This document shows positions 12,588 through 48,795 of a stretch of 48,834 bases of DNA, in pieces. Location: IMG/VR virus record IMGVR_UViG_3300045885_000249, positions 1 to 48,834 of that record; one strand, written 5' to 3'. A program made the translations under genes and the position numbers. The notes below the pieces were generated by a model that was not told the origin of the DNA, searched no databases, and saw only the letters and a program-made list of their open reading frames with translations. Positions within the stretch are counted from its first letter, which is position 1, and each line of letters opens with the position of its first letter. Source of the stretch: a virus.

Positions 12588-12740
12588 ATGCGAAAACCAA
12601 TCATCACTTCTATCGAGACAGTAACGCCTTCACTCGCCGCGCGCTATTTCGCCGAGCGCGCCGTGAACCGGTTTGCGAGTAACGAAGTTATGCCGCGACT
12701 CGATCCAGACCAGCTGCCCCGGAGCGATACCGATGAGTGA
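12588..12740 (+). CDS. Small leader protein of recombination operon
   Basis: A 50-residue protein starting after GGGGAAAG. It has a charged, mostly helical sequence with no recognised domain. Its stop overlaps the ATG of the exonuclease gene, typical of translational coupling, which supports real translation. It is the first gene of the rightward operon; function unknown. Confidence 0.55.
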   Translation: MRKPIITSIETVTPSLAARYFAERAVNRFASNEVMPRLDPDQLPRSDTDE

Positions 12741-13527
12741 AGGATTACAGCCGGGACGACAAGTGTTAACCGCCGACGAGTACCACGCGGATCGTAGCGC
12801 GGTATCGAAAGGGTGGCTGGATAAAATCGAGCGATCAGCCGCGCATCTGAAAGCGTGGTTAGACGGTTACGCGAAACCGGCGACGCCGACACAGGCACTC
12901 GGCAAGCTGACGCACGTCGCCGTACTGGAGCCGGACTTACTGACGGCGCAGTTCATTACCAAGCCGACGGAGATCAACCGGCGCACGAAAGTCGGTCGCG
13001 AAGAGTACGCCGCGTGGGAGATCGAGAACGCACATAAGACGATTATCACCGACGACCAGATGGCGGTCGCGCTCGCGGTCCGCGACTCGGTAAATAGGCA
13101 CAAGGCGGCGCGCGCGTTACTCGGTGACGGCTCGCCGGAAGAAACGATGGTATGGCGGAACGGCGAAACCGGCGAACTATGTAAAGCACGCGCCGATTGG
13201 TTAAGCCGCATCGCGATAGTCGATGCGAAGACGACGCACGACGCGCGGCCGGCGGAGTTCGCGAAGTCTATCGTGAACTATCGGTATGACGTACAGACGG
13301 GTCACTATCTCGAAGGATTCCAGCACGATCTGTTCGCGTGGATTGCCGTCGAAGTGGAACCGCCCTATGCCGTCGCCGTATACGTCGCCGACGCCGTTAT
13401 CCGTCAGCGCGGACTCGAAGCGCGCGACCGGAATTTGAGAACATACGCCGAGTGTAAAGCGAAGAACGAGTGGCCTGCCTATCCCGACGTGGTAACGACT
13501 ATCGAACTCCCGAGGTGGGCGCGATGA
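12733..13527 (+). CDS. RecE-like PD-(D/E)XK exonuclease
   Basis: A 264-residue protein of the phage exodeoxyribonuclease VIII-like family (PDDEXK-like, DUF3799 type). Visible core: GKLTHVAVLEP (about 57-67, His/Glu), RADW (153-156), IVDAKTT with Asp164 and Lys166, and the Q-x-x-x-Y motif (Gln188, Tyr192). It would resect double-stranded ends to give single strands for the annealase encoded two genes downstream. The start at 12733 has GGAG upstream and overlaps the previous stop; the longer frame from 12673 was rejected. The pairing with Bet makes a RecE/Bet-type recombination module. Confidence 0.88.
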   Translation: MSEGLQPGRQVLTADEYHADRSAVSKGWLDKIERSAAHLKAWLDGYAKPATPTQALGKLTHVAVLEPDLLTAQFITKPTEINRRTKVGREEYAAWEIENAHKTIITDDQMAVALAVRDSVNRHKAARALLGDGSPEETMVWRNGETGELCKARADWLSRIAIVDAKTTHDARPAEFAKSIVNYRYDVQTGHYLEGFQHDLFAWIAVEVEPPYAVAVYVADAVIRQRGLEARDRNLRTYAECKAKNEWPAYPDVVTTIELPRWAR

Positions 13528-13736
13528 CTCCGGATGAGAAAGTATTCTGGCGCGGCGTTGCGGATTCTTTTAACCGGATGCGCGACGAGATAACTGTGGA
13601 ATGCGCGAAGATAAAATCTAACCAAACGAACCGCGCGTATGCTCAGCAAGTCGCGTTGATTTTTTCCGGCCTATCGGTCGCGATCTTGGAAGGCTTAAAA
13701 GCAGTCGAAACTACAACACGGAGAACAGAACAATGA
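13524..13736 (+). CDS. Small protein between exonuclease and annealase
   Basis: A 70-residue protein, start ATG overlapping the exonuclease stop and its own stop overlapping the annealase start (both ATGA). The sequence is amphipathic helical (KVFWRGVADSFNRM, QQVALIFSGLSVAIL). No family is recognised; because it is locked between the two recombination genes it may be an accessory of that module. Confidence 0.65.
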   Translation: MTPDEKVFWRGVADSFNRMRDEITVECAKIKSNQTNRAYAQQVALIFSGLSVAILEGLKAVETTTRRTEQ

Positions 13737-14497
13737 ATAAGGCAGCAGAAGCTACAGAGGTAGCGGTACGAACGGACCGGAAGGTAACGCTGGTCGGAAC
13801 GATGGCAAGCAAGCTCGGTATCGAGCCAGCGAACTTAATGAAGACACTGAAGGCGACGGCGTTCAAGCCGCCGAAGATAGACGGTAAATATCAGGAAGTA
13901 ACCGACGAGCAAATGATGGCGCTACTGATCGTCGCGAACGAACACGGGCTGAATCCTTTTACGCGCGAAATCTTCGCCTTTCCCGACAAGCACAACGGCA
14001 TCGTGCCGGTCGTCTCGGTCGATGGGTGGATTCGGATTATCAACGACCATCCGCAATTTAACGGCGTGAAGTTCGAACTCGACTGGACCGAAGGTAACGA
14101 GTCGTGTACTTGCACGATCTGGCGAAAGGATCGTGACCACCCTATCGTCGTCACGGAATACCTCGCGGAGTGCTATCGCAACGTTGGCGCGTGGCTTACA
14201 CACAAGCGCCGGTTCCTTCGGCATAAGTCTCTCATTCAATGCGCGCGCGTCGCGTTCGGCTTCGCCGGTATCTATGACCCTGACGAAGCGCAGCGTATTC
14301 GCGAAGGCGAGATCATCGACATTACGCCGGACGCGCCGAAGAACGAAGCCGAGACACTGAATATACAACTCGGACTCTCGACTACGTATGACGACGGCAG
14401 TGCGCCAGTCGGTCCGGATGGTGGTCGCGGTTCGCTCGGTACGAAGCCGACGACGCGCGAGCCGGGCGAAGACGACGACGAAGACGGCAACGCGTGA
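13733..14497 (+). CDS. bet: Bet/RecT-family single-strand annealing protein
   Basis: A 254-residue recombinase of the lambda Bet-like RecT family. Conserved blocks are visible: the AFKPP-containing start of the core, EQMMALLIVANEHGLNPFTREI, VVSVDGWIRIINDHPQFNG, a Cys-containing TCTIWRKDRDHP strand, and the FLRHKSLIQCARVAFGF helix. It binds single-stranded DNA and anneals complementary strands, acting with the RecE-like exonuclease. The C-terminus (about 200-254) is an acidic linker. Coupled by ATGA upstream and GTGA downstream. Confidence 0.92.
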   Translation: MNKAAEATEVAVRTDRKVTLVGTMASKLGIEPANLMKTLKATAFKPPKIDGKYQEVTDEQMMALLIVANEHGLNPFTREIFAFPDKHNGIVPVVSVDGWIRIINDHPQFNGVKFELDWTEGNESCTCTIWRKDRDHPIVVTEYLAECYRNVGAWLTHKRRFLRHKSLIQCARVAFGFAGIYDPDEAQRIREGEIIDITPDAPKNEAETLNIQLGLSTTYDDGSAPVGPDGGRGSLGTKPTTREPGEDDDEDGNA

Positions 14498-15914: not shown

Positions 15915-16727
15915 ATGAACGCAGTAACTGAGGGGAATCTGGACGGACTCGAAAGTATCCAGAAGCTTACGAAGGATCTGAAGCGCAGCGCCGTAACTCT
16001 AGGACGAACTGAAGCGCGGTTCCTAGTCGATGCCTACTACACGATGCAGAAGCAACGTATTCGAGCCGGTAATCAAGTCGGCGCGCTCGCGAAGTCAGGC
16101 GAGCCGCACGAGATCATCGACTGGTTCCTCGCGCAGAACGAGACGCTGGAGAACCAAGTGAAGAACGCACTCGCCGCGTACGCACAGGGCGATCCCGTCG
16201 GGCAGTGGATGCTATCGGTGCGTGGTATCGGTCCGGTGCTTTCCGCCGGACTGCTCGCGCATATCGACATAACGAAGTGCCCGACCGTCGGACACATATG
16301 GTCGTTCGCAGGACTGGACCCGACGCGCGAATGGAAGAAAGGCGAGAAGCGTCCGTGGAACGGCTCACTCAAAACATTGTCGTGGAAGATCGGCGAGTCA
16401 TTCGTAAAAACCAAAGGACATGAAGAAGGATACTATGGCGCGCTATACGATCAGCGCAAAGAGTACGAGCAGACGAAGAATGCGGCAGGAGAATACAAGG
16501 AACAAGCCGCTGAAATTCTCAAGCGCACGCCGAGTCACAAGCAGGCAGCAACGTACAAAGATGGCAAGCTGCCGGACGGCCACATTCACGCGCGGGCCAA
16601 GCGCTACGCCGTCAAGCAATTTTATTCCGACCTGCATGCATTTTGGTATCGGCACGAGTTCGGAACTGAACCGCCGTTGCCCTACCCGATTGCGATTCTC
16701 GGACACGCGCATCTGAGGAAGCCGTGA
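15915..16727 (+). CDS. tasA: TIGR-associated Tas protein (standalone Nop/IS110-C-terminal domain)
   Basis: A 270-residue protein. Residues 9-95 form a long amphipathic helical coil. Residues 98-135 contain the helix-hairpin-helix block SVRGIGPVLSAGLLAHIDI plus FAGLDP. Residues 221-245 carry HIHARAKRYAVKQF, and it ends LGHAHLRKP. This is the C-terminal Transposase_20-like half of IS110 proteins, which in IS110 and in box C/D Nop proteins holds guide RNA. The N-terminal DEDD/RuvC-like catalytic domain of IS110 is absent, so it is not a transposase by itself. Its 3' end abuts an array of about 36-nt units. The combination fits the standalone-Nop class of TIGR-Tas systems, an RNA-guided DNA-binding protein without a nuclease. 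SD GGGAGA precedes the start. Nuclease activity would need a partner or an unseen site. Confidence 0.82.
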   Translation: MNAVTEGNLDGLESIQKLTKDLKRSAVTLGRTEARFLVDAYYTMQKQRIRAGNQVGALAKSGEPHEIIDWFLAQNETLENQVKNALAAYAQGDPVGQWMLSVRGIGPVLSAGLLAHIDITKCPTVGHIWSFAGLDPTREWKKGEKRPWNGSLKTLSWKIGESFVKTKGHEEGYYGALYDQRKEYEQTKNAAGEYKEQAAEILKRTPSHKQAATYKDGKLPDGHIHARAKRYAVKQFYSDLHAFWYRHEFGTEPPLPYPIAILGHAHLRKP

Positions 16728-17706
16728 TAAAAGGCCATCCGCTACGAAAGACACATAGCGCACGAGCGAGTCATGCCGTCAGAAAGTCACACACGAAAAG
16801 AACGAGCCAGCAAGCTGACAAGGAAACACATATAGGGGCACGTCCGGTCTAAATTGCAGCGAGTCACTTTCATGATTCAGAGGAACGAGTCAGCATCAAC
16901 GAGAAAACCAAACCTTATGAGCGAGCCATCGTGACAGGAAAGCACCAATGAAGTTGTGCGAGTCTGGCGTGTAGAGAGGACCAGCGAGTTCGAACGAGTC
17001 AAAAAAGCAAAAGCGAGCCATATAGTGTGAGAGCAACAACGGTAACGGAGCGAGTCACTCAAAGGGACAGCATCATCCAATGCGAACGAGTCATGCTGTG
17101 CGAGAGAATCACACTGCTCGAACGAGTCGAGTCATAGCACGAGGAGCGTACCAATAGGGACCGAACGAGTCACAGTATCAGACAGCAACAAAGTACCCGA
17201 ACGAGTCAGCAAGCTAAGCGCACCACAAAGCGAGAACGAGTCATTCAGTTCGAATGCACCATCAAATGAGAACGAGTCAGGAAGCAGAGCGCACCATATA
17301 GCGCGAACGAGTCAACAAGAGTGAACGCAACAATCAATGCGAACGAGTCATATGCCAAGACAGCAACAAAAGTCCCGAGCGAGTCATTCGGATGATTGCA
17401 ACAAGGAACCGAACGAGTCAGAAAATCGGACAGAAACACCAAGCCAGAGCGAGCCAAAGGGAATGACAGCAACGAGAGGAAGGTGCGAGCCATAGTATGC
17501 GAGAGAACCTTCACAGGTGAGCGAGCCAAGCTCAGGGATAGATCCAATTCGGTTGTGCGAGTCATTTAATGTGAGAGCACCGTCTATGTGGAACGAGCCA
17601 GTTATGTGTGACAGCAACAAACAATGAGAGCGAGTCATTAGGAGAGACAGTACCATCCCAACAGAGCGAGCCATAGAAGCCGAAAGACTCACGGATGCTA
17701 GAGCGC
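16728..17706 (+). repeat. TIGR array (tandem interspaced guide RNA array)
   Basis: Edge repeat GARCGAGYCA (10 nt) starts at 16764, 16800, 16857, 16883, 16919, 16956, 16992, 17011, 17048, 17084, 17120, 17163, 17199, 17234, 17270, 17305, 17341, 17377, 17411, 17447, 17483, 17519, 17555, 17591, 17628 and 17664: 26 copies, ten of them exactly GAACGAGTCA. Between them an 8-nt spacer, a loop repeat near GACAGCAMCA (10 nt) and another 8-nt spacer make 36 nt, for example 17163 (cagtatca / aagtaccc) and 17048 (ctcaaagg / tccaatgc). Most periods are 34-37; exceptions are 57, 26, 19 and 43. A degenerate first edge (16728-16737) directly follows the tas stop. Not CRISPR: repeats are too short and of two kinds. 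Expected processing is into 36-nt tigRNAs carrying two spacers. No gene is seen in this stretch. Confidence 0.88.
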
Positions 17707-17733
17707 CTTTTTCAAACGAAGTGGGAGAGAACA

Positions 17734-37332: not shown

Positions 37333-37892
37333 ACCACACCAATCCCCATTCGTGAGTTCGGCTCGATGAACTCCCGGCACTCGTTCTGTCGCCGCAGCTT
37401 CTTCCAAAGGATCGGAACTTCAACCGGCGTCCGCGTCGCCTTGAACTCCTGACCGGTTCCCGCGATGTCATGGAATGCCACGAGCGGCGCGAAGTCTTTG
37501 TACAATTCCCAATCGCGCGTTACGCCGGCGAGTGAATGATCGCCGTCGATGAATACCGCATCGAATGGTCCGAAGCCGGCGAGTAACCGCTGCGTACTCT
37601 CGGTCTGCGAGTTCGCGAATACGATGGAGGTGTCGTAACCGCGCTTCAGTAAATCCTGACACGCCAGCTTCAGATGCTTCGATGACTTCGGCGTTCCCCA
37701 TAGCGCACCGGGAAGATCGACGGCTACACCGAAACTCCCGGCCGGTAACTGCGTCATAATGTGGTGGAATGTATCGCCGTGCCGCGCACCGATTTCCAGA
37801 TAGCGTCGAACGTCGCGCTGCTTAAGCAATCCAACCAATAGGCTTAACTCCGCTTCGTTTTGGCTTGCGGGCCTGCCCGAAAATGTGCGCAA
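37317..37892 (-). CDS. Class I SAM-dependent methyltransferase
   Basis: A 191-residue protein. Motif I YLEIGARHGDTFHHI, then VAVDLPG (acidic end of beta 2) and DAVFIDGDHSLAGVTRDWEL (post-motif, as in Methyltransf_24/FkbM-like enzymes). TTG start at 37892 with GGAGAAAG upstream. It lacks DNA methyltransferase motifs, so the substrate is more likely a sugar or lipid. Member of the three-gene cassette between the neck genes. Confidence 0.75.
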   Translation of the reverse strand: MRTFSGRPASQNEAELSLLVGLLKQRDVRRYLEIGARHGDTFHHIMTQLPAGSFGVAVDLPGALWGTPKSSKHLKLACQDLLKRGYDTSIVFANSQTESTQRLLAGFGPFDAVFIDGDHSLAGVTRDWELYKDFAPLVAFHDIAGTGQEFKATRTPVEVPILWKKLRRQNECREFIEPNSRMGIGVVCNSI

Positions 37893-38397
37893 TTTCTTTC
37901 TCCGTTGCGAAGCGAAAGCACGTCAGCGACGAGCCGCGCGTGCAGTTGATAACTTCCACGTGTTGACGGTTCGCGCGCTCCCAGTCTTGATACTCGCTCA
38001 TATGGTGAGCGCGTTTATCCGGCTTGGTATTCGCACAGCCGTTAGTGTACTGACCGAAAAAATGCGTGCCGTGCATATCGAAGCCGTGCAGGAAAATTCG
38101 CTTCGCGCCGGATCGCTTCGCCATCTCCAGTGCGAATACTCCGGAGTTCACGACGGCCATCCGCACGCGCGTAATTCCCGGCGCGCCACAGATCGTGAAC
38201 TTGTGTCCGGCGAAGTTCTTCGCCGCTGACTCGTTCCGCCAGAACTTCGAATCAGTCGAACAAAGGAACCGCGCGTCAGGCGCGAGCCGGTACGCACTCG
38301 TCACAACGCCGAGCAAAGGACGCGGTAACTTATCTGCGAGCTGCTGACTCGCGCTCGGTCCCGGCGCGAGCAGATGCCAGTCGGCTTCCTCGCGCAT
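37822..38397 (-). CDS. Rossmann-type glycosyltransferase-like protein (GT42/DUF115-like)
   Basis: A 191-residue protein. LLAPGPSASQQLADKL has the G-x-G-S loop of GT42/DUF115-type folds; NSGVFALEMAKRSGAKRIFLHGFDMHG matches the second conserved block of that class. It resembles sialyltransferase-like and MptE-like proteins of phage surface modification. Its start (TGATG) overlaps the head-closure stop by one base, and its stop overlaps the methyltransferase start. Substrate unknown. Confidence 0.6.
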   Translation of the reverse strand: MREEADWHLLAPGPSASQQLADKLPRPLLGVVTSAYRLAPDARFLCSTDSKFWRNESAAKNFAGHKFTICGAPGITRVRMAVVNSGVFALEMAKRSGAKRIFLHGFDMHGTHFFGQYTNGCANTKPDKRAHHMSEYQDWERANRQHVEVINCTRGSSLTCFRFATEKEIAHIFGQARKPKRSGVKPIGWIA

Positions 38398-38741
38398 CAC
38401 TGGTCGAGCCGGACACCTTCGCCGCACATCAGCGTCAGGTGTTCCGTACCGGATTCGGCGTCTGGTAAAACCGCGTGAATCGCATACCACTTGCCGCGAT
38501 ACACCACACGACAACTCGCGTCCACGTCGTCGCGGTAACGGATCGTGAGCCGGTTCCGGACTTCCGACTGCGCAGCGGACGCGGCGATGTACTCGTTGCC
38601 CGACTGAGGATTGATAGCGGCCCACGCATAGGCGACGAGTAACCAGTCACGGATTTCCTCGCCAGTCTCTACATTCTGAACTACCGTCGGCGACTCGATA
38701 GTGACGTAATGGCGGAGATCGCCGGCGAAGACGGCGGGCAC
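38397..38741 (-). CDS. Head closure protein
   Basis: A 114-residue protein with the SPP1 gp16-type pattern: GDLRHYVTIESPT, then WAAINPQSGNEYIAA, RLTIRYRDDVDASCRVVYRGKWYAIHAV. It closes the connector after DNA packaging. First neck gene after the head-tail connector. Confidence 0.82.
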   Translation of the reverse strand: MPAVFAGDLRHYVTIESPTVVQNVETGEEIRDWLLVAYAWAAINPQSGNEYIAASAAQSEVRNRLTIRYRDDVDASCRVVYRGKWYAIHAVLPDAESGTEHLTLMCGEGVRLDQ

Positions 38742-39153: not shown

Positions 39154-40040
39154 GACAATTTCACCGGCGCGGCCGGCGCGTCGTCTTCGCGCGCTGGTGT
39201 ATTCGCATCGCGTCCGCGACGCGCGGCCATCGTCCACGCATTACGGTTCGCATAGCACGGCTTCAGATCGGTGTCATACTTCGCGATCCATAGCGATCCG
39301 TCCGCCGTCCACGCGTCTCCCGCCTTTGCCTTCCGTCCGGCTTGCCAAAAACCGCGATGAATGACGACCGGCAGGTGAAAGGTAAACTCGCGTTTCATCT
39401 TTCCGGATTCGAACTTCAGCGTCACGCCGCGCTCGCCGTCGTAAGTCGCAGAGAAGTCCGAGAGATCGAAGCCGTCAGCGCCGACGACGAGACCGACACT
39501 CCGCAGTTCTCCGTTCGATAGCGTGAGGCATAGCTGCCCGGTCTGGTCGATGAACGCGCCGGCTAGTCCAAATCCGGGATCGCCTTTCACGCCCGGTACG
39601 CCGGCCGGACCGACCGGACCGGGATCGCCGTCACGGCCAGCCATGCCCGGTGCACCGGCCGGTCCCGGTTCACCCCGTGGTCCCGGCTCGCCGGCGACTC
39701 CCGGCTCGCCCTGCGGGCCTACAGGGCCAGCTATGCCGCGCTCGCCGGCCGGTCCCGGTTCACCCCGTGGTCCCGGCTCGCCGGCGACTCCCGGCTCGCC
39801 CTGCGGGCCTACAGGAAGGCATACGCCGTCCAAGACTTCGGCCACGACTTCCCGCATCAGGGCCGGCTCGGACCGGAGCGCCGCCACGATGTCTTCGTGG
39901 CTAATGGTCGCCGGGACCGCCGGCGGTTGCGGGATCGCCGCCTGCCTTTCGAGTTCGGCGATGCGTTCTCGCAGCGGCTTGACTGCGGCTGCGATAGTCC
40001 GGCCAACTTCCGCGCCGAACTTATCCGGATCAAAGTTCAT
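39150..40040 (-). CDS. Collagen-like virion protein
   Basis: A 296-residue protein. Residues 1-75 are helical ([18 protein letters not shown]). About residues 76-155 form G-x-y triplets ([13 protein letters not shown]) with a 90-bp duplication. The C-terminal domain ([30 protein letters not shown]) recurs in collagen-like phage proteins near portal genes. A trimeric triple helix on the virion is likely. It lies between portal and connector genes; the start overlaps the portal gene end by 11 bp. Confidence 0.8.
39655..39815. repeat. 90-bp tandem duplication in collagen-like gene
   Basis: 39655-39725 and 39745-39815 are identical over 71 bp with a 90-bp offset, which keeps frame (30 residues). 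A recent expansion of the Gly-x-y stretch. Confidence 0.85.
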
Positions 40041-47135: not shown

Positions 47136-47984
47136 CTACGCCGCCTTTTTATACTCGTCGGAAAGGATCACCGGGACGGTATACCGCCACCGGACTTTAT
47201 GGTGAATCCTCGCATACGTGCTAGGCATAACGCTAATCCTGACCGACGACGGCTGATACATTACCGAGTAAAACGACTTCACGAACGTCCCGCGATCCTC
47301 ATAGATGCCGGACATTCCGCCGTCGTTCGTCTGCGTCTGCATCTGTTGCAGCGCGACGTTCGGAATAGTCAGGAACACGCCGCCGCGCGAGCCGAGATTG
47401 GTGTAGGTGTTCACGTCTTCGTTGATCCGGCCGAAGAACTGGAACGGCCTGTCTACCGAACAGATCAGGCTATTCATACATTTCCGTTTCGGCTTCGTCC
47501 AGTTCCCGTCGCGCCCACCAAGGAAGTCGCCGCCTTGCGCCATCGCGAGAGATAACGCGGGAGTGGCTTCGTAGTATTCGAGCATCGCCGTGAAAACCGC
47601 GTCCAAATTTCGAATATCTTTCTTGTGGATATACTCGCCGTGCCCGTTTCGTTTGTGGCGAAAATCCACATAGTCGTCGTCAAGCTGTACGAAGTATTTG
47701 AAGCCTAGTTCCTTCGCGATTTCGAAACACGCATTGCGCGCATAGATAATTGCCCGCCGATCATTGAAGTTGTCGCCTTCGTCTATCTGCTCCGCGATCC
47801 GTTTCTTGTCGAAGATATATACGAGTTCCCCGAACCGTTCCCGATATTCCGGCTCGGTTTCGTCTTCGTCGTCTATGACAATACGCACCGCTCCGGTATA
47901 ACCGGACTTCATCAGCGTGTCGTACGTATAGACGCGATCCGCGCGCGCGTGCGTAAGGACGAATGCCACGAAGTCAGTCCTCAT
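47136..47984 (-). CDS. TET-associated-type glycosyltransferase (TAGT)
   Basis: A 282-residue GT-A-like enzyme. Motifs include VLTHARADRVYTYDTLMKSGY, IVIDDEDE, a RNACFEIAKELGFKYFVQLDDDY with the metal-binding DDD, and LAMAQGGDFLGG. This fits the TAGT family, which in phages glycosylates oxidised or hypermodified bases alongside TET-like dioxygenases. The start at 47984 overlaps the ParB-like gene by 11 bp. No TET-like dioxygenase is visible in this window, so the acceptor is unclear; alternatives are a virion or host-surface glycan. Confidence 0.82.
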   Translation of the reverse strand: MRTDFVAFVLTHARADRVYTYDTLMKSGYTGAVRIVIDDEDETEPEYRERFGELVYIFDKKRIAEQIDEGDNFNDRRAIIYARNACFEIAKELGFKYFVQLDDDYVDFRHKRNGHGEYIHKKDIRNLDAVFTAMLEYYEATPALSLAMAQGGDFLGGRDGNWTKPKRKCMNSLICSVDRPFQFFGRINEDVNTYTNLGSRGGVFLTIPNVALQQMQTQTNDGGMSGIYEDRGTFVKSFYSVMYQPSSVRISVMPSTYARIHHKVRWRYTVPVILSDEYKKAA

Positions 47985-48795
47985 CTGGCGTCGCCTCACT
48001 ATCGCCGTAGGAGTCGGTGTAAATGTTCTCGATCTTTTTCGACATTTCCACGTAGCCATACTCAATAGCTTTATCGAAGTCGATAATCACCAGCGCGGAC
48101 TCTTCCATCAGCGCCTGCATTTCCGCCGTCGCGTGACAGTAGTATTCCGCAATCTGGTGGTAATCGAAGACGGTATGCCGCGCCGCCGCCAATCGCATGA
48201 ACTCTTTCTCTTCCTCGCTAATCGACGCCGCGTCAATCTTCGCGCTTAACTCGTTAGTGCGTACCCTATCCACCAACGCGTATAGCTCCGGACGTTCACC
48301 CGTCGGCTCGTATACGACAGAATCCGTCTTCTGACTGTACTCCGGATCATTGTCACCAAAGAGTGACGACAGTTCGTTCGGCGCGAAGCCTATAGTATTC
48401 ATATCGAATTTCAGATCACGCAACTCGCCTAACTCCAAGGCGAGCATTTCCGAATCCCATTCGGCGTTCATCGCGATTTTATTATCCGCGATGATATACG
48501 CGCGCTTCTGCGCATCGGTCCATCCGTGGGCCGTCATACACGGCACCTCCGTCAGTCCTAGCTGTCTCGCCGCGAGTACCCGACCGTGACCCGCGATGAT
48601 CGTACCGTCTTCGTCCACGAGAACCGGCGTCGTCCACCCCCACTCCCGCATCGAACCGGCAATCTGCGCAATCTGTGCTTCCGAATGCAGTCGCGCGTTC
48701 CTCGCGTACGGAATAAGCAATTCAATGCTTCGTCGTTCGACTCGATCCGCCGGCCACTCCGGTTCCGCCTTCGTCTTCGTCGCCTTTCGCTTCAT
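47974..48795 (-). CDS. ParB-like protein
   Basis: A 273-residue protein. Residues 20-105 form the ParB N-terminal fold (ELLIPYARNARLHSEAQ, VLVDEDGTIIAGHGRVLAARQLG) including the GHGR turn. The rest is a phage-specific domain with YHQIAEYYCHAT and LVIIDFDKAIEYGY. It may bind DNA and help packaging or modification. Start at 48795 follows AGGGAT. Adjacent TAGT gene and terminase suggest a role linked to genome modification or packaging. No methyltransferase domain is fused. Confidence 0.8.
   Translation of the reverse strand: MKRKATKTKAEPEWPADRVERRSIELLIPYARNARLHSEAQIAQIAGSMREWGWTTPVLVDEDGTIIAGHGRVLAARQLGLTEVPCMTAHGWTDAQKRAYIIADNKIAMNAEWDSEMLALELGELRDLKFDMNTIGFAPNELSSLFGDNDPEYSQKTDSVVYEPTGERPELYALVDRVRTNELSAKIDAASISEEEKEFMRLAAARHTVFDYHQIAEYYCHATAEMQALMEESALVIIDFDKAIEYGYVEMSKKIENIYTDSYGDSEATPDED

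What the first reader, a model, noticed from the sequence alone, without database searches (positions are those of the whole stretch)
15915..17706. A TIGR-Tas-like RNA-guided system in a phage genome
Seen: a 270-residue protein equal to the C-terminal (guide-RNA-binding) half of IS110 transposases, with no N-terminal DEDD domain, whose stop codon is followed at once by about 26 units of 36 nt. Known: TIGR-Tas systems consist of a Nop-domain protein plus an array processed into 36-nt RNAs with two spacers, found in phages and related parasites. Inference: this is a Tas protein of the standalone class (no HNH or RuvC part) and its array. It would be annotated as a transposase by routine pipelines. 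Its biological role is open: silencing of competing phages or host loci by DNA binding, or recruitment of another enzyme.
Basis: partly seen in the sequence, partly recalled or inferred. Interest (0 to 1): 0.97.

Follow-up and report, generated by a model that had tools for sequence, protein, structure and literature searches.

The report
Phage TIGR-TasA locus with guide array
This phage carries a nuclease-free TIGR-Tas system: a small RNA-binding protein and about 26 paired mini-guides that should steer it to 16-bp DNA targets. It is a new member of a family first described in 2025, and comparison with its relatives shows that the guide pairs are swapped between related phages while the framework around them stays fixed.

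Summary
Window 15915-16727 encodes a 270-aa Nop-domain protein without a nuclease domain, and a dual-repeat array of about 26 units of 36 nt starts at its stop codon and ends near 17710. It is a TIGR-TasA locus. NCBIfam TIGR_Tas_endo scores 223 bits (cutoff 100), IS110 only 25 of 140. The closest solved structures are TasH and TasR by sequence and fold; IS110 transposases come behind. Array anatomy (10-nt edge, 8-nt spacer, 10-nt loop, 8-nt spacer) matches the TasH system of Salicola phage CGphi29. Of 97 related loci, 95 have such arrays. In 87 arrays the 3' half of each edge repeat covaries with the 5' half of the NEXT edge (z about 23-25), not with its own (z about 0): the evolutionary imprint of a 36-nt guide RNA with paired ends. 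Spacers change 4-10 times faster than repeats, and both spacers of a unit change together (p=3e-8). The window's spacers have no target in its own phage above the control. The kind is known (Faure et al. 2025); this is a new member. The biological role is unproven; blocking competing DNA without cutting is my best guess.

The parts
15915..16727 (+). tasA: 270-aa nuclease-free Nop-domain Tas protein
   Evidence: NF052498 TIGR-Tas 223 bits; PDB matches TasH/TasR; AlphaFold2 pLDDT 85, Foldseek top hits TasH/TasR
16728..17710 (+). TIGR dual-repeat array, about 26 units of 36 nt (edge 10, spacer A 8, loop 10, spacer B 8)
   Evidence: unit parse; profile score 380 versus at most 18 in shuffled loci
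16728..16737 (+). truncated first edge repeat (TAAAAGGCCA) adjoining the tasA stop codon
   Evidence: agrees with the published array anatomy
16836..16882 (+). degenerate or truncated units
17011..17700 (+). most regular stretch of the array
17701..17712 (+). truncated last edge GAGCG followed by CCTTTTT (array end; only a weak terminator-like hairpin)
12673..13527 (+). exonuclease VIII / PD-(D/E)XK, same strand, upstream early gene
   Evidence: PF12684 9e-26; phrog_412 3e-69
13733..14497 (+). RecT/Bet-like ssDNA annealing protein, same strand upstream
   Evidence: PF03837 2e-23; phrog_252 5e-70

Best explanation
This is a phage-borne TIGR-TasA system. tasA and the array are probably transcribed together. 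The transcript is cut once in each edge repeat into 36-nt tigRNAs, whose two ends pair (edge positions 7-8 with positions 4-3 of the next edge) and whose loop closes by its own 3-8 pair. A TasA dimer holds one tigRNA. Spacers A and B pair with opposite, adjacent DNA strands (8+8 bp, no PAM) and bend the DNA. With no nuclease domain, TasA binds without cutting and most likely blocks transcription or replication of competing mobile DNA; the guide repertoire is renewed as spacer pairs inside a fixed framework. Shown here: homology, predicted fold, array anatomy, pairing covariation, pairwise spacer turnover in relatives, and no self-targets above control. Taken from Faure et al. 2025: processing, dimer, dual-strand targeting, bending. 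Inferred: interference with competitors (about 50%). The confidence given is for the identity and molecular mechanism.
For: NF052498 equivalog match, 223 bits against cutoff 100, while the IS110 model scores 25 of 140. phmmer: TasH 7e-13, TasR 6e-12; profile: TasR 1e-23, TasH 2e-14, IS621 only 5e-5. AlphaFold2 pLDDT 85; Foldseek top 11 hits all TasH/TasR. Array anatomy, very like SpTIGR. 461 relatives in IMG/VR; arrays beside 95 of 97 loci tested. Mature-end covariation z 23-25 for the next edge, about 0 for the same edge; loop 3-8 z 10.9. In the window, 0 A-C mismatches in 18 joins, 2.5 expected, p=0.012. Spacers diverge 10-16%, repeats 1.6-2.6%, both spacers replaced together, p=3e-8. No self-targets above control.
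Against: No RNA or binding data for this phage. No natural target was found for any unit tested. Faure et al. saw no phage or conjugation defence even with nuclease-bearing TasR in E. coli. Several units of the window's array are truncated or degenerate, so part of the array may be decaying.
Confidence: 0.85

Rival explanations
1. TIGR-TasA used for regulating the phage's own genes: tigRNAs guide TasA to sites in the phage genome.
For: TasA could act as a repressor; tasA lies among early genes.
Against: Among 304 units from 15 loci (the window and 14 relatives), matches to their own DNA in target geometry do not exceed the control with reassigned spacers: 1 versus 1 unit at one mismatch, 25 versus 37 at two or fewer. 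Spacer pairs turn over fast, unlike conserved regulatory guides.
Confidence: 0.1
2. TIGR-TasA used as an RNA-guided DNA-bending helper for recombination, integration or replication (suggested by Faure et al. for integrases).
For: In the window tasA follows exonuclease VIII and RecT genes; the relatives in mycobacteriophages sit beside a Cas4-like exonuclease gene; some relatives lie near ParB-like genes.
Against: No neighbour family found is shared by more than 7 of 83 loci. Many varied guides are not needed for one attachment or origin site. Exact target searches for 3 of 7 guides in the 4-Mb Halomonas genome carrying a relative found nothing.
Confidence: 0.15
3. Remnant of an IS110 element that kept the bridge-RNA-binding half; the repeats are unrelated.
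For: PF02371 hit; PHROGs label 'transposase'.
Against: 461 conserved viral relatives, array in 95 of 97 loci, Tas structures far ahead of IS110, IS110 model far below cutoff, covariation in the array.
Confidence: 0.01
4. The array is a tandem repeat or CRISPR-like array with no functional link to the protein.
For: Adjacency alone would not prove a link.
Against: Co-occurrence in 95 of 97 loci, upstream and/or downstream of tas; edge and loop end-motifs covary between loci (r=0.89), as expected from binding one symmetric dimer.
Confidence: 0.01

Closest known systems
TIGR-TasH of Salicola phage CGphi29 (SpTIGR; PDB 9w04, 21kl)
   Same: Phage-borne; Nop domain homologous over residues 91-266; nearly the same edge repeat (AAGCGAGCCA against GAGCGAG[T/C]CA), 8-nt spacers, 36-nt units, array downstream
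   Different: SpTasH has an N-terminal HNH nuclease; the window's protein has none. SpTIGR ends in a clear terminator, the window only in a weak one.
TIGR-TasA (solo Nop domain, e.g. FpTasA of Flavonifractor plautii), Faure et al. 2025, PMC12045711
   Same: Domain architecture, dual-repeat array, 36-nt unit length, phage or provirus setting
   Different: FpTIGR has 9-nt spacers; this family has 8. The array is longer (about 26 units against the usual 5-15).
TIGR-TasR (TaTasR, PDB 9mty)
   Same: Nop domain and coiled coil; guide architecture; profile E 1e-23
   Different: No RuvC domain; different repeat sequences
IS110-family transposase (IS621, PDB 8wt6)
   Same: Distant homology of the RNA-binding half (E 5e-5)
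   Different: No DEDD domain and below the IS110 model cutoff; a guide array in place of a single bridge RNA
Stem-loop TIGR arrays of Fromanvirus mycobacteriophages and Gordonia phage Morrissey (read here)
   Same: TasA beside paired-spacer units; spacer pairs differ between phages in conserved stem slots
   Different: Stem-loops instead of edge repeats, 9-nt spacers, about 5 units

Membership tests
TIGR-Tas (TasA class) | Nop-domain protein of the Tas clade rather than IS110 | tested here: met
   NF052498 223 bits against cutoff 100; IS110 25 of 140; Foldseek top 11 are TasH/TasR; PDB profile search
TIGR-Tas (TasA class) | No N-terminal HNH or RuvC domain | tested here: met
   270 aa; only Nop/IS110 C-terminal and Tas models hit; the model is all helical, starting at residue 9
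TIGR-Tas (TasA class) | Adjacent array: edge, spacer A, loop, spacer B with 8-12-nt repeats and spacers of about 8-9 nt | tested here: met
TIGR-Tas (TasA class) | Box motifs shared and covarying between edge and loop | tested here: met
   G-ending fraction of edge against loop r=0.89 across loci; both repeats start GA and end CA in the window
TIGR-Tas (TasA class) | Array processed into 36-nt tigRNAs cut inside edge repeats | tested here: inconclusive
   Indirect support: covariation of edge n (positions 7, 8) with edge n+1 (positions 4, 3), z 23-25 in 87 arrays, window p=0.012. No RNA data.
TIGR-Tas (TasA class) | Truncated first and last edge, terminator after the array | tested here: inconclusive
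   Truncated edges present; no confident terminator, only a weak hairpin before TTTTT
TIGR-Tas (TasA class) | tigRNA-guided DNA binding on both strands | not testable with these tools
   needs biochemistry
IS110 transposase | DEDD domain plus C-terminal domain; passes family model | tested here: not met
   NF033542 25.2 bits against cutoff 140; no DEDD part

The most novel reading that the evidence does not exclude
TIGR arrays renew their guides by in-place, paired spacer replacement: both short spacers of a unit are swapped while the unit's own repeats, order and neighbours stay. This would be a diversification mode unlike CRISPR leader-end acquisition, seen in dual-repeat arrays and apparently also in stem-loop arrays of cultured mycobacteriophages. 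Exchange of whole units by recombination between arrays is the plain alternative that I could not exclude.
Probability: 0.4. Interest if true: 0.82.

Novelty: new member of a known kind. Interest (0 to 1): 0.45.

Why it matters
TasA is the most common Tas type and its function is unknown. This locus adds a clean phage example and, through its relatives, evolutionary evidence that the 36-nt RNA is the selected unit and that guide pairs turn over quickly, as expected in a conflict between mobile elements. The search also showed that about 76 sequenced mycobacteriophages, nearly all of the laboratory host M. smegmatis mc2 155, carry a TasA; the six read here have stem-loop arrays. That makes the open questions (targets, guide renewal, role of nuclease-free Tas) testable in a cultured system.

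Tried and rejected
Self-targets: 304 units from 15 loci against their own DNA (whole contigs for most, only the fetched stretch for five), four strand orders, gaps 0-2: no excess over the control. Cross-targets: 1,112 units against 1.31 Mb of related phage DNA: 2 units with exact hits in every order, the chance level. Host targets: three of seven guides of the Halomonas prophage relative against its 4-Mb genome, no exact hit; all seven against its 301-kb contig, nothing better than 2 mismatches except one GC-rich guide with 1 mismatch, taken as chance. Two guides conserved in five related phages scanned in IMG/VR: 34 and 35 contigs against 24 for a control order, no clear enrichment. Four mycobacteriophage guides against 50,697 phage records: no mycobacteriophage hit (only uninterrupted matches of about 17 nt or more can be seen). 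A/B spacer covariation: none. Rfam: no match. PADLOC: no match. No near-identical phage was found for the window itself, so spacer turnover could be shown only in relatives. An earlier self-training array parser sometimes ran away on shuffled sequence and was replaced by fixed profiles.

Full report
OBSERVATION. The 270-aa ORF lies at 15915-16727 on the plus strand. From the base after its stop codon to about 17710 the sequence is an array of 36-nt units. A unit is edge (GA[A/G]CGAG[T/C]CA), 8-nt spacer A, loop (GA[C/G]AGnnnCA), 8-nt spacer B. About 26 units are present; four or five are truncated or irregular. With fixed repeat profiles the array scores 380, against a maximum of 18 in 30 shuffled loci.

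WHAT THE PROTEIN IS. Pfam gives only PF02371 (E 6.4e-5) and PHROGs 'transposase'. The curated NCBIfam model NF052498, TIGR-Tas, matches with 223 bits (cutoff 100), while the IS110 model reaches 25 of 140. Among solved structures the best sequence matches are TasH of Salicola phage CGphi29 and TasR. An AlphaFold2 model (mean pLDDT 85) gives TasH and TasR as the first eleven Foldseek matches, with IS621 and ISCro4 transposases next. There is no nuclease domain, so it belongs to the TasA class of Faure et al. 2025 (PMC12045711). The NCBIfam title says 'endonuclease', which overstates what a nuclease-free member can do.

WHAT THE ARRAY IS. The published TIGR array is edge, spacer A, loop, spacer B, with spacers mostly of 9 nt (8 in SpTIGR), beginning and ending with truncated edges. 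The window fits, and its repeats closely resemble those of the CGphi29 TasH locus. A profile scan of IMG/VR found 461 relatives; of 97 loci examined, 95 have such arrays upstream and/or downstream of tas.

A TEST OF THE 36-NT UNIT WITHOUT RNA DATA. In the TasR structure the ends of one tigRNA, which come from two neighbouring edge repeats, pair with each other (legend to Fig. 6 of the paper). I tested this in 87 arrays with 1,687 edges by permuting within arrays. Position 8 of edge n pairs with position 3 of edge n+1 in 91% of cases (80% expected, z=23), and position 7 with position 4 of the next edge in 92% (80% expected, z=25). The same positions within one edge show no excess (z=0.3 and -0.5). 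The loop's own 3-8 pair covaries (z=10.9) but not with the next loop (z=1.2). In the window alone, no A-C mismatch occurs in 18 joins where 2.5 are expected (p=0.012). This is what a 36-nt RNA running from mid-edge to mid-edge should leave behind. The pairing itself was known; here it shows that the TasA arrays are under selection for it.

HOW THE GUIDES EVOLVE. Two phage contigs (L009, L014) have tas genes 99% identical and arrays with the same units in the same order, yet in several units both spacers differ while the repeats, including rare unit-specific variants such as GAAAGAGCCC, are unchanged. Over 20 pairs of related loci, in units flanked by conserved units, spacers A and B differ at 16% and 10% of positions, edges and loops at 1.6% and 2.6%. 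Spacers were both kept in 68 units, both replaced in 11, and only one replaced in 8 (Fisher p=3e-8; the pairs of loci are not all independent, so the p value is too small). Whole units are also gained, lost and duplicated. In mycobacteriophages with nearly identical TasA, conserved stem-loop slots likewise hold different spacer pairs.

TARGETS. None found. Own DNA of 15 loci, a 1.31-Mb pool of related phage DNA, the Halomonas host of one relative, two IMG/VR pattern scans and the phage collection gave nothing clearly above control. With 16-nt composite targets, large collections are saturated by chance matches, so only small, well-chosen search spaces are informative. The target order I used first (spacer B, then the reverse complement of A) is my derivation from the reported 8-nt 3' overhangs; other orders were run as well.

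CONTEXT. The window is a linear IMG/VR record of 48.8 kb of a tailed phage with terminase, portal, major head, tape-measure and tail-fibre genes. tasA lies in the early region after exonuclease VIII and RecT genes. Across relatives the neighbours include replication and recombination genes of changing kinds, in 7 loci a ParB-like gene (my reading of the sequence), and no partner found is shared by more than 7 of 83 loci. This favours a self-contained system.

VERDICT. A TIGR-TasA locus, new member of a known kind. The role is unproven: I consider binding-only interference with competing mobile DNA most likely, because guides are many, renewed quickly in relatives, and not detectably aimed at the phage itself. 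The finding's extra value lies in the comparative results and in the cultured mycobacteriophage relatives that open the question to experiment.

Noticed in passing
L249 (2626-2953), L250 (2606-2937), L251, L252, L253, L254: Fromanvirus mycobacteriophages: About 76 Mycobacterium phages carry a TasA annotated 'transposase' or 'hypothetical protein', near a Cas4-like exonuclease gene; the six read here have stem-loop TIGR units (CCA-9nt-CG-loop-CCA-9nt-CG) before it, whose spacer pairs differ between phages in conserved stem slots.
   Followed up: partly
L021:2454-3683 (Gordonia phage Morrissey): TasA (gp42) with at least six stem-loop TIGR units of CCA-9nt-CG-NNNN-CCA-9nt-CG form on both sides of the gene.
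   Followed up: partly
L020:3751-4120 (Microcystis phage Mvi-JY20): TasA-like gene followed by a dual-repeat TIGR array (ATGCGAGCC / TACGAAACCC) that ends in a hairpin with a T run.
   Followed up: no
L009:5844-6775 against L014:733-1592: Homologous TIGR arrays beside 99%-identical tas genes in which several units have both spacers replaced while their repeats are kept.
   Followed up: yes
L002:6105-6231: Duplicated stretch within the TIGR array: spacer B GAACAGCC and its flanking repeats occur twice with different spacers A.
   Followed up: no
window 37822-38625 and 47136-48065, minus strand: PHROGs matches to an alpha-2,3-sialyltransferase and a beta-glucosyl-HMC-alpha-glucosyltransferase among or beside the structural genes.
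   Followed up: no
window 39635-39815: Two 90-bp tandem copies (94% matches) of a G+C-rich repeat that looks like a collagen-type Gly-Pro coding repeat on the minus strand.
   Followed up: no
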